Origin: an uncultured Rhodobiaceae bacterium | GTDB taxonomy: Bacteria; Pseudomonadota; Alphaproteobacteria; RS24 | Direction of reading: 5' to 3' | Assembly (NCBI GenBank): GCA_937907245.1 | Contig: CALCUM010000003.1 | Location: 559,501 to 623,500 of the forward strand | Length of the DNA stretch: 64,000 nucleotides | Part shown: positions 23,355 through 45,443 of the stretch, piece by piece | How positions within the stretch are numbered: the stretch's first letter is position 1 | Layout of the letters: every line of letters begins with the position of its first letter | Position numbers and translations under genes: made by a program | The notes under the pieces: model-generated | Database searches by the model: none | Seen by the model: the letters and a program-made list of their open reading frames with translations, nothing else | What the model was told of the DNA's origin: nothing

Positions 23355-23458
23355 GGTGCGCTCCCTGATTAGCGGGAAGCCTATCAAGGCGGAGGAAGCT
23401 TGGCAATCGGGTTGGCTACGGCCGACTTCGGGGCGATGCCATTACGCTGCAGCTAGGC

Positions 23459-23487
23459 GGGCCAAAGGCAGCGAAGCTGCCAAGCCC
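23459..23487. terminator. Nested hairpin after tRNA-Ser
   Basis: GGCAGC-GAA-GCTGCC is a perfect 6-bp stem with a 3-base loop, enclosed by GGGC (23459-23462) and GCCC (23484-23487). In the tRNA direction it begins about 9 nt after the CCA end but has no good T-tract; on the plus strand TTTT follows. Probably a transcript end or processing element. Confidence 0.5.
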
Positions 23488-23495
23488 TTTTAGCG

Positions 23496-23586
23496 TGGCG
23501 GACAGAGAGGGATTCGAACCCTCGAGACGCTATAAACGCCTACACGCTTTCCAAGCGTGCGCCTTCAGCCACTCGGCCACCTGTCC
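23496..23586 (-). tRNA. tRNA-Ser (anticodon GGA)
   Basis: A 91-nt class II tRNA with the long variable arm typical of serine. The 5' GGACAGG pairs with the 3' TCTGTCC (one G-T), followed by discriminator G and an encoded CCA. The anticodon loop CTTGGAAAG gives anticodon GGA, reading UCC/UCU. GGTTCGAATCC forms the T arm. The first 13 nt of this tRNA recur twice upstream in an 89-bp repeat. Confidence 0.96.
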
Positions 23587-23775
23587 TTCACCAACACATA
23601 CGATAACCCGTCTGCGCAAAGCGCGTTAAGGTTACCTTTCGGTAACCAAACGCTTCTAGCGTCGGCCACCTGTCCTTCACCAACACATACGATAACCCGT
23701 CTGCGCAAAGCGCGTTAAGGTTACCTTTCGGTAACCAAACGCTTCTAGCGTCGGCCACCTGTCCGTCACCAACAC
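23574..23775 (-). repeat. 89-bp tandem repeats containing tRNA-Ser 5'-end fragments
   Basis: The tRNA's first 13 nt (GGACAGGTGGCCG on the minus strand) recur at exact 89-bp spacing: within the tRNA (from 23574), at 23663 and at 23752. The two intervening 76-bp segments are identical by eye, each with a perfect hairpin GGTTACC-GAAA-GGTAACC. The third copy is truncated after about 24 bp and differs at one base. A promoter-like site sits just beyond it. In the minus direction, two non-functional tRNA starts therefore precede the real one. Confidence 0.9.
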
Positions 23776-23780
23776 CATGT

Positions 23781-23808
23781 GTCGTATTCGGATACTTATA
23801 ATTGTCAG
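23781..23808 (-). promoter_or_regulatory. Possible tRNA-Ser promoter
   Basis: On the minus strand, CTGACA (23803-23808), 16 bp, TACGAC (23781-23786). The core TGACAATTAT is the same as in the region upstream of tRNA-Leu. Transcription would begin near 23774, about 10 nt before the outermost tRNA-start fragment and about 188 nt before the real tRNA. Confidence 0.35.
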
Positions 23809-23828
23809 GCCGCGAGATGCAAGCGTGT

Positions 23829-25634
23829 TTAGTCGTCCATTTTCAACGCCGCAATAAAGGCGCCTTGTGGGATTTCTACGCGACCGAATTGGCGCATCTT
23901 CTTCTTGCCTTCTTTTTGCTTATCCAACAATTTGCGCTTCCGACTTACATCGCCACCATAACATTTGGCCGTCACATCTTTGCGCAAGGCAGCAATGGTT
24001 TCGCGGGCAATAATTTTACCGCCCAAAGCCGCTTGAATAGGAATTTTAAACAAATGACGCGGGATTAAATCCTTCAACCGCTCGCACATGGCCCGGCCTC
24101 GGCTCTCAGCACGTTCGCGGTGTACAATCGTCGATAGCGCATCCACCGGTTCAGCATTCACCAGAACCGACATTTTCACCAAATCGCCCGTGCGATAATC
24201 AGATATCTTATAATCAAAACTCGCATAGCCGCGAGTCACACTTTTCAATCGGTCATAGAAATCAAACACCACTTCATTGAGCGGCAATTCATATTCCAAC
24301 ATCGCGCGATTGCCCGCATAGCTCAAATTGATCTGGCTGCCGCGGCGGTCTTCGCACAGCTTTAACACTGCGCCCATATATTCGTCTGGCACCAAAATCG
24401 AAGCCCGAATCCACGGCTCATCAATATGGTCGATATAAATCACATCTGGCATATCAGCAGGGTTGTGCAACTCCTGCATCGAGCCATCATTCATGTGCAA
24501 TTGATAAACCACACTCGGCGCCGTGGTAATCAAATCAATGTCGAACTCGCGCTCAATGCGCTCACGAATAATCTCCAAATGCAGCAGGCCTAAAAAGCCG
24601 CACCGAAAACCAAAACCAAGAGCGGCGCTGGTTTCCATCTCAAAGTCAAAGCTCGCATCGTTCAACCGAAGGCGCGCCATAGCTTCGCGCAAATCTTCGA
24701 ATTGCGACGAATCGGTTGGGAAAAGGCCACAAAAAACAACAGGTTGCGATGGTTTAAAGCCATCTAACGCAATCTCGCAAGGGTTGCGCTCTTCCGTTAC
24801 TGTGTCGCCAACGCGCGTATCTGCCACTTGTTTAATCGCTGCGGTGAAATAACCTATCTCGCCCGGGCCCAATTCTTTCACCGTGTCGCGCTTAGGACGA
24901 AACACGCCAACTTGGTCAATCGGGTGACTGGCACCTGACGACATCATGCGGATTTTCATACCCTTTTTCATCGTGCCATCGATAACGCGCACCAGCACCA
25001 CAACGCCCAAATAAGCGTCATACCAACTATCCACCAACATGGCCTTCAGCGGCGCTTCAGGGTCGCCGGCGGGGGGCGGCAATTGGGTGACAATCGCTTC
25101 CAAAACATCCTCAATACCGAGGCCCGTCTTGGCCGATATATCCACGCTATGCTCGGTATCTAGGCCGATAACATCCTCGATTTGCTGCTTCACACGATCG
25201 GGTTCGGCCGCAGGCAAATCGACTTTATTCAGCACCGGCACAATTTCGTGATCAACCTCGATGGCTTGGTAAACATTGGCCAAGGTTTGGGCTTCCACGC
25301 CTTGGCTGGCATCGACTACCAAAAGCGAGCCTTCGCAGGCGGCCAGCGAGCGGTTTACCTCATAGGCAAAATCCACATGGCCTGGCGTGTCGATAAGATT
25401 GAGCTGATAAGTGTTGCCATCGGCGGCTGTATAATCAAGCCGCACGGTTTGCGCCTTAATGGTAATGCCGCGCTCGCGCTCAATATCCATATTGTCCAAA
25501 ACTTGATCGGACATCTCGCGCGCGCTTAAGCCGCCGGTCAACTGAATGAGGCGGTCGGCCAAAGTTGATTTGCCGTGGTCAATATGGGCAATAATCGAGA
25601 AATTGCGAATGTGGTTTTGCGTCTGTTTACTCAT
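23829..25634 (-). CDS. lepA: Elongation factor 4 (LepA)
   Basis: Ribosome-associated GTPase that can back-translocate the ribosome and aids translation under ionic stress. 601 residues: G1 AHIDHGKST (16-24), switch region [12 protein letters not shown]3 DTPGHVDF and G4 NKVDLP are all present. The EF-G-like domains III and V follow, along with the LepA-specific C-terminal domain ending [13 protein letters not shown]. Length and motifs are standard. It lies downstream of pheT with an 89-bp gap containing twin palindromes (25671-25709). Confidence 0.98.
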
Positions 25635-45340: not shown

Positions 45341-45443
45341 CCTAATTTGGTGCCTAATTTGGTGCCTAATTTGGTGCCTAATTTGGTGCCTAATTTGGTG
45401 CCTAATTTGGTGCCTAATTTGGTGCCTAATTTGGTGCCTAATT
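45341..45443. repeat. 12-bp tandem array, 8 copies
   Basis: CCTAATTTGGTG repeated eight times without a mismatch (45341-45436), then a partial CCTAATT. It lies between recQ and the ABC-F gene, upstream of the latter. Because 12 is a multiple of three, one plus-strand frame reads Leu-Ile-Trp-Cys repeatedly, but no gene is supported there. Confidence 0.97.

What the first reader, a model, noticed from the sequence alone, without database searches (positions are those of the whole stretch)
23574..23808. Array of tRNA-Ser 5' fragments and hairpins between a promoter-like site and the tRNA
GGACAGGTGGCCG, the first 13 nt of tRNA-Ser, occurs three times at exact 89-bp intervals; only the last leads into a full tRNA. 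Each 76-bp spacer has a perfect GGTTACC/GGTAACC hairpin. The sequence after each fragment (ACGCTAGAAG) resembles the DNA after the real tRNA's CCA (ACGCTAAAAG), as if two upstream tRNA copies had lost their bodies by internal deletion. A promoter-like TGACA box lies just outside the array, so a leader with two false tRNA starts would be transcribed.
Basis: partly seen in the sequence, partly recalled or inferred. Interest (0 to 1): 0.62.

Follow-up and report, generated by a model that had tools for sequence, protein, structure and literature searches.

The report
Mobile hairpin repeat at tRNA-Ser gene
The "tRNA fragments" are copies of the start of a serine tRNA gene, duplicated when a small hairpin-forming mobile DNA element inserted into that gene. 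The element belongs to a family found in one group of marine bacteria that repeatedly lands at the ends of tRNA and other genes while leaving an intact copy, and the enzyme that moves it is unknown.

Summary
The array is real: three copies of the tRNA-Ser(GGA) 5' end at exact 89-bp steps, with two identical 89-bp units. It is not a set of tRNAs that lost their bodies. The spacer is one member of a repeat family, HP1: a 43-47 nt bulged hairpin (CGC-TAAAA-stem-GCCTT-GCG) with strong compensatory base changes. HP1 has 19-21 copies at 8 loci in this genome, 5 of them at tRNA genes, and up to 23 copies per genome in related PS1-clade bacteria. It was not convincingly found in other alphaproteobacteria sampled. 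In about a third of the copies examined, HP1 sits between two copies of the target sequence, with the left copy ending exactly at the hairpin base, so the tRNA or protein gene end stays intact. A sister genome shows the empty tRNA-Ser site. The array is best read as one such insertion 14 nt inside tRNA-Ser, later amplified in tandem. A promoter conserved in 16 of 16 syntenic relatives lies upstream of the first fragment, so the array is probably transcribed as leader. Folding predicts no harm to the tRNA. RAYT/IS200-type transposases and reverse transcriptases were not found in any genome, Cas1 in only two of 28. How HP1 moves is unknown.

The parts
23829..25634 (-). lepA (elongation factor 4), upstream gene; its stop codon precedes the promoter
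   Evidence: ORF of 601 aa; tblastn relatives across alphaproteobacteria, best an uncultured PS1-clade bacterium at 88%
23795..23822 (-). putative promoter TTGCAT-N16-TATAAG of the tRNA-Ser transcript
   Evidence: TTGNNN-N16-TATANN at the same place in 16 of 16 syntenic relatives, 9-12 nt before the first GGACAGG in 13 of them; the strict sigma-70 scan does not report it
23751..23775 (-). target copy 1: 11 nt of leader + first 14 nt of tRNA-Ser (one mismatch to the other copies)
   Evidence: family D2
23704..23750 (-). hairpin element HP1, copy 1
   Evidence: covariance model hit 61 bits, E 1.5e-13
23687..23703 (-). short tail of unit 1 between HP1 and the next target copy
23662..23686 (-). 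target copy 2 (25 nt)
23615..23661 (-). hairpin element HP1, copy 2 (identical to copy 1)
   Evidence: fold and shuffles
23598..23614 (-). short tail of unit 2
23573..23597 (-). target copy 3, in register with the functional tRNA
23496..23586 (-). intact tRNA-Ser(GGA) with encoded CCA
   Evidence: ARAGORN; Rfam tRNA 55.8 bits
23451..23495 (-). third, degenerate HP1 copy starting directly after the tRNA CCA
   Evidence: covariance model hit 32.1 bits

Best explanation
The array is the product of a small hairpin-forming mobile repeat (HP1, often followed by a second hairpin, HP2) that inserted 14 nt inside tRNA-Ser(GGA) and left a duplicate of the target (at least 14 nt, in this genome 25 nt: leader plus tRNA 5' end) on the other side. 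The tRNA was thus rebuilt intact and its displaced first 14 nt were left upstream as a scar. Unequal recombination between the direct repeats then gave two identical 89-bp units. The same element is inserted at other tRNA and protein gene ends in this bacterial family. Shown by sequence: the element family, its hairpin, the target duplications, the empty site in a sister genome, the array's copy-number variation between genomes. Inferred: that the tandem copies came from unequal crossing-over, that the array is transcribed from the upstream conserved promoter as a pre-tRNA leader removed by RNase P, and that the array is neutral or nearly so. Unknown: the enzyme that moves the element.
For: (1) Filled versus empty site: G016 differs from sister genome G015 by exactly 95 nt, flanked by the 14-nt repeat GGACAGGTGGCCGA, with 92% identical left flank (25 nt) and identical tRNA over the length compared; the fragment is present in 9 of 28 family genomes with 1-2 copies and absent in others. 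(2) HP1 is a family: model R1 finds 19-21 copies at 8 loci here and copies in 17 of 28 family genomes, up to 23 each. (3) The hairpin is real: in the 15-sequence alignment 13 of 14 pairs have changes on both sides, with 0 of 500 shuffles as high on each of the five measures; in 106 distinct sequences 93.4% of cells are paired against 29-48% for slid controls. (4) Target duplication: in 33 copies a flanking direct repeat beats 100 of 100 shuffles, and in 26 of these the left copy ends exactly at the HP1 base; some of these are tandem arrays. In protein-gene cases the stop codon of the rebuilt gene mostly lies inside the duplicate. (5) tRNA preference: 5 of 8 loci here and 29 of 77 examined copies lie within 150 bp of a tRNA (binomial p about 3e-9 for this genome, assuming about 43 tRNAs). 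(6) Identical units within G000 but diverged units between genomes fit recent tandem amplification.
Against: No movement has been observed. In G016 the leader part of the duplicate is not recognisable, only the 14 tRNA nt. Over half of the HP1 copies show no significant flanking repeat, including those fused exactly to a tRNA CCA, so insertion with target duplication is not proven for every copy. The duplicate length varies widely (about 11 to 71 nt), which is unusual for a single transposase. No candidate enzyme was found.
Confidence: 0.85

Rival explanations
1. One reading: two upstream tRNA-Ser gene copies lost their bodies by internal deletion, leaving 5' ends joined to old 3' flanks.
For: The sequence after each fragment resembles the DNA after the tRNA's CCA in this genome.
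Against: The resembling sequence is a mobile hairpin found at unrelated tRNAs and in lepA; five relatives have fragment plus hairpin but no such 3' flank; a sister genome shows a clean empty site.
Confidence: 0.04
2. The array is a functional leader: false tRNA starts and hairpins regulate tRNA-Ser processing or act as RNase P decoys.
For: The conserved promoter lies upstream of the array; the fragment-plus-hairpin arrangement recurs at this tRNA in three genera.
Against: Absent from most relatives; predicted folding leaves the tRNA acceptor stem paired at probability 0.97 or more with no pairing to the decoys; the same element sits at many unrelated genes.
Confidence: 0.08
3. HP1 units are minimal site-specific integration units: a tyrosine recombinase (perhaps XerC/D, or one since lost) integrates a mini-circle that carries its own copy of the gene end, as phages and islands do at tRNA genes, rather than a transposase making a target duplication.
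For: Rebuilding of gene 3' ends, preference for tRNAs and tandem arrays resemble integrase islands; tyrosine-recombinase genes occur in all genomes.
Against: Genomes with 19 and 23 copies have only two integrases, presumably XerC/D; each unit would have to carry a different host gene end, whereas HP1 itself is constant; no att-like core shared by the targets was seen.
Confidence: 0.2
4. Plain local tandem duplication of an 89-bp stretch, no mobile element.
For: The two units are identical.
Against: Does not explain HP1 at other loci, the covarying hairpin, or the empty site.
Confidence: 0.02

Closest known systems
REP sequences / REPINs mobilised by RAYT (TnpA_REP)
   Same: Short hairpin-forming repeats with internal mismatches, near gene ends, often in inverted or clustered pairs
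   Different: No Y1/RAYT transposase in any of 28 family genomes; copy number at most 23 rather than hundreds; flanked by long duplicates of the target; strong tRNA preference
CGTC-tagged REPs and Rickettsia palindromic elements (PMC3733652)
   Same: Palindromic repeats of alphaproteobacteria reported to lack a dedicated transposase, some inserted in genes
   Different: HP1 has no CGTC end tag and has a bulged stem; some second hairpins (HP2B) end in GAGACG, the reverse complement of a CGTC start, which is only a lead; the RPE-type insertions described there are in-frame within genes, not gene-end rebuilding
MITEs (non-autonomous miniature transposons)
   Same: Small size (about 75 nt plus duplicate), apparent target duplications, dispersed, no coding capacity
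   Different: Duplicates of about 11-71 nt instead of a short fixed length; no parent transposon identified
Casposons and Cas1-type integration (PMC4046053)
   Same: Insertion at 3' ends of tRNA and elongation-factor genes with target duplications of variable length (1-27 nt)
   Different: No Cas1 in 26 of 28 genomes; no casposon genes
E. coli tyrT rtT repeats (from memory)
   Same: Tandem repeats next to a tRNA gene, each holding a piece of that tRNA
   Different: There the repeats follow the tRNA and hold its 3' end; here they precede it, hold its 5' end and contain a dispersed mobile hairpin

Membership tests
REP / REPIN (RAYT-mobilised) | Short imperfect palindrome repeated in the genome | tested here: met
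   HP1 model R1, covariation and copies
REP / REPIN (RAYT-mobilised) | Associated Y1 (HUH) transposase, Pfam PF01797, in the genome | tested here: not met
   0 of 28 genomes; control genomes ring
REP / REPIN (RAYT-mobilised) | GTAG or CGTC tag at one end | tested here: inconclusive
   HP1 itself shows neither; HP2B variants end in GAGACG (reverse complement begins CGTC)
REP / REPIN (RAYT-mobilised) | High copy number, usually over 100 per genome | tested here: not met
   At most 23 copies per genome
MITE | Target-site duplication on insertion | tested here: met
   33 copies with significant flanking repeat, 26 ending exactly at HP1; empty site
MITE | Terminal inverted repeats of a known transposon | tested here: inconclusive
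   The 3-bp base pairs of HP1 are its only terminal symmetry seen; no parent transposon was identified
Retroelement (SINE-like, group II, retron) | Reverse transcriptase (PF00078) available | tested here: not met
   0 of 28 genomes
Casposon / Cas1 integration | Cas1 (PF01867) present | tested here: not met
   Only G020 and a fragment in G003
Integrase-type genomic island | Integrase gene in or beside the element | tested here: not met
   Elements are about 90-130 nt without genes; G027 and G023 hold only two integrases each
Known structured RNA families (Rfam 15) | Match of HP1 to a family | tested here: not met
   No match to HP1 at gathering threshold in the window, nor up to E 1 in 8 loci

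The most novel reading that the evidence does not exclude
HP1 represents a previously undescribed class of mini mobile element that inserts preferentially at the ends of tRNA and protein genes, duplicating a variable 11-71 nt of target so that the gene is rebuilt, and that moves by an enzyme or host process not of the RAYT, reverse-transcriptase or Cas1 type.
Probability: 0.4. Interest if true: 0.75.

Novelty: new variant of a known kind. Interest (0 to 1): 0.5.

Why it matters
It explains an apparently odd tRNA-fragment array as an insertion scar of a hairpin repeat family confined, as far as tested, to one family of streamlined marine bacteria. It shows a tRNA- and gene-end-targeting mini-element whose long, variable target duplications keep essential genes intact and whose mobiliser is not one of the usual suspects, so the mechanism of movement becomes a testable question.

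Tried and rejected
tRNA-body deletion as origin: rejected. RAYT/IS200, reverse transcriptase and Cas1 as mobiliser: not found in the family, or in only two genomes for Cas1. Dedicated phage integrase: the count of integrases does not follow HP1 copy number. Known RNA family: no Rfam match. Phage origin: three HP1 patterns gave no hit in viral contigs. Decoy pairing of the fragments with the tRNA 3' acceptor strand: folding predicts none. Strict sigma-70 scan: no promoter reported, replaced by comparison between relatives. A single weak HP1 hit in another family (G139, 34 bits) has only a short internal match and was taken as chance. Literature searches found no description of this family; the library is open-access only.

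Full report
Observation. The array is as described and slightly larger. On the minus strand, between lepA (23829-25634) and tRNA-Ser(GGA) (23496-23586), two 89-bp units (23662-23750, 23573-23661) are 100% identical, and the tRNA 5' end occurs three times 89 bp apart. The block shared by all three copies is 25 nt (GTGTTGGTGA[C/A]GGACAGGTGGCCGA), that is 10-11 nt of leader plus 14 nt of tRNA. The unit is found nowhere else in the genome. The organism is a PS1-clade alphaproteobacterium: the best lepA relative named in the collection is an uncultured PS1-clade bacterium at 88%, whose 64,288-bp contig equals in length that of family member G014.

What the spacer is. The sequence after each tRNA fragment begins CGCTAGAAG. 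Patterns and alignments showed that it belongs to a family of bulged hairpins, consensus CGC-TAAAA-GGGCT-TTGG...-TTAGCCC-GCCTT-GCG, here called HP1. Its 14 base pairs covary: in 15 sequences 13 pairs have changes on both sides, and on each of the five measures none of 500 shuffles reached the observed value. In 106 distinct sequences 93.4% of cells are paired against 29-48% with the partner slid (that alignment was fitted to the model and leans towards it). The window copy folds exactly so on its own. A covariance model finds 19-21 copies at 8 loci in this genome, three of them in the window (23704-23750, 23615-23661, and a degenerate one at 23451-23495 directly after the tRNA CCA). In the family 17 of 28 genomes carry it, with up to 23 copies. 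Of 191 genomes sampled across the class, only two family members and one weak single hit elsewhere matched. No Rfam family matches it, and no viral contig held the patterns tried.

How it sits in genes. Five of the eight loci in this genome are at tRNA genes: Ser-GGA, Ser-CGA, Leu-UAA, Thr-GGU and Met-CAU; the binomial p is about 3e-9 if the genome has about 43 tRNAs, a number I assumed. In stretches fetched from relatives, 29 of 77 copies lie within 150 bp of a tRNA. There are three arrangements: sense at the tRNA 5' end (Ser-GGA only); antisense at tRNA 3' ends (Leu, Thr, Ser, Met-CAU); and fused directly to the tRNA 3' end (Ser, Met-CAU, Tyr, and a tRNA with the sequence of an Arg tRNA in G006). 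Others sit at protein gene 3' ends. lepA of G022 and G027 was hit at several different positions; further targets recognised by eye, not tested, include glutamate synthase, thioesterase and SufE genes. In 33 copies the left flank of HP1 recurs downstream better than in 100 shuffles, and in 26 of these the left copy ends exactly at the hairpin base (this includes tandem arrays). HP1 is often followed by a second hairpin (CCAGCG-stem-AAGTCGG), after which the duplicate begins. In most of the protein-gene cases listed the stop codon lies inside the duplicate, so the gene is rebuilt.

Empty and filled tRNA-Ser site. In sister genomes G015 (empty) and G016 (filled) the difference is exactly 95 nt flanked by GGACAGGTGGCCGA, with matching leader and tRNA on either side. 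Counting one degenerate and one contig-end case, nine of 28 family genomes have the fragment plus hairpin at this site. Five of those with the fragment lack any HP1 after the tRNA, which excludes the idea that the spacer is the old 3' flank of a deleted tRNA body.

Transcription. Between the lepA stop codon and the first tRNA fragment, TTGNNN-N16-TATANN occurs in 16 of 16 syntenic genomes, with or without array, mostly 9-12 nt before the first GGACAGG. In this genome it is TTGCAT at 23822-23817 and TATAAG at 23800-23795, 30 nt before the first fragment. A strict consensus scan does not report it. The array is therefore probably transcribed as a leader of about 200 nt. Folding of the precursor keeps the tRNA acceptor stem paired at probability 0.97 or more and gives no pairing with the upstream copies, so interference with processing is not predicted. 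All of this is inference without RNA data.

Mechanism. Best reading: insertion of HP1 with duplication of the target, then unequal recombination between the direct repeats to give two units. Within-genome identity of units and divergence between genomes fit this. The tRNA-Thr array of this genome runs into the ends of contigs C2 and C3, and other arrays stand at contig ends in relatives, as expected for tandem repeats. The mobiliser is unknown: no Y1 transposase and no reverse transcriptase was found in any of 28 genomes, Cas1 in two, and genomes with 19 and 23 copies have only two integrases. Several of these genomes are incomplete drafts, so absence is not absolute. An integrase-like capture of gene ends, possibly by Xer, remains the main rival.

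Comparison with known systems. HP1 resembles REPs and MITEs. It lacks the RAYT partner and high copy number of REPs, and its duplicates are longer and more variable than those of usual MITEs. CGTC-tagged REPs of alphaproteobacteria also lack a dedicated transposase (PMC3733652). Casposons also target 3' ends of tRNA and elongation-factor genes with variable duplications (PMC4046053), but Cas1 is missing here. I found no paper describing this family, within an open-access library.

Noticed in passing
G000:C2:1-176 (L145) and G000:C3:1041669-1041791 (L142): A 127-bp tandem array of tRNA-Thr 3' end plus HP1 reaches both contig ends; it probably caused the assembly gap between C3 and C2.
   Followed up: partly
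G000:C3:487500-489600 (L144): Downstream of tRNA-Met(CAU), HP1 sits inside a partial tRNA-Met T-arm copy; a second truncated tRNA-Met piece with HP1 lies 1.3 kb further on.
   Followed up: partly
G000:C3:940379-941036 (L168): After tRNA-Ser(CGA) the encoded CCA is replaced by HP1, followed by an inverted 123-bp array of further HP1 copies.
   Followed up: partly
L204, L212 (G022, G027): The lepA 3' end is duplicated two to three times by separate HP1 insertions at different positions.
   Followed up: partly
window 45341-45443: Perfect 12-bp tandem repeat, 8.6 copies (CCTAATTTGGTG).
   Followed up: no
L282 (G020) and L283 (G003): Cas1 genes in two of 28 family genomes; the G020 one lies about 2 kb from a tRNA-Ser(GCU) with HP1 copies.
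   Followed up: no
L273 (G019:C52): Two HP1 copies lie about 1 kb from a 427-aa phage-type integrase gene.
   Followed up: no
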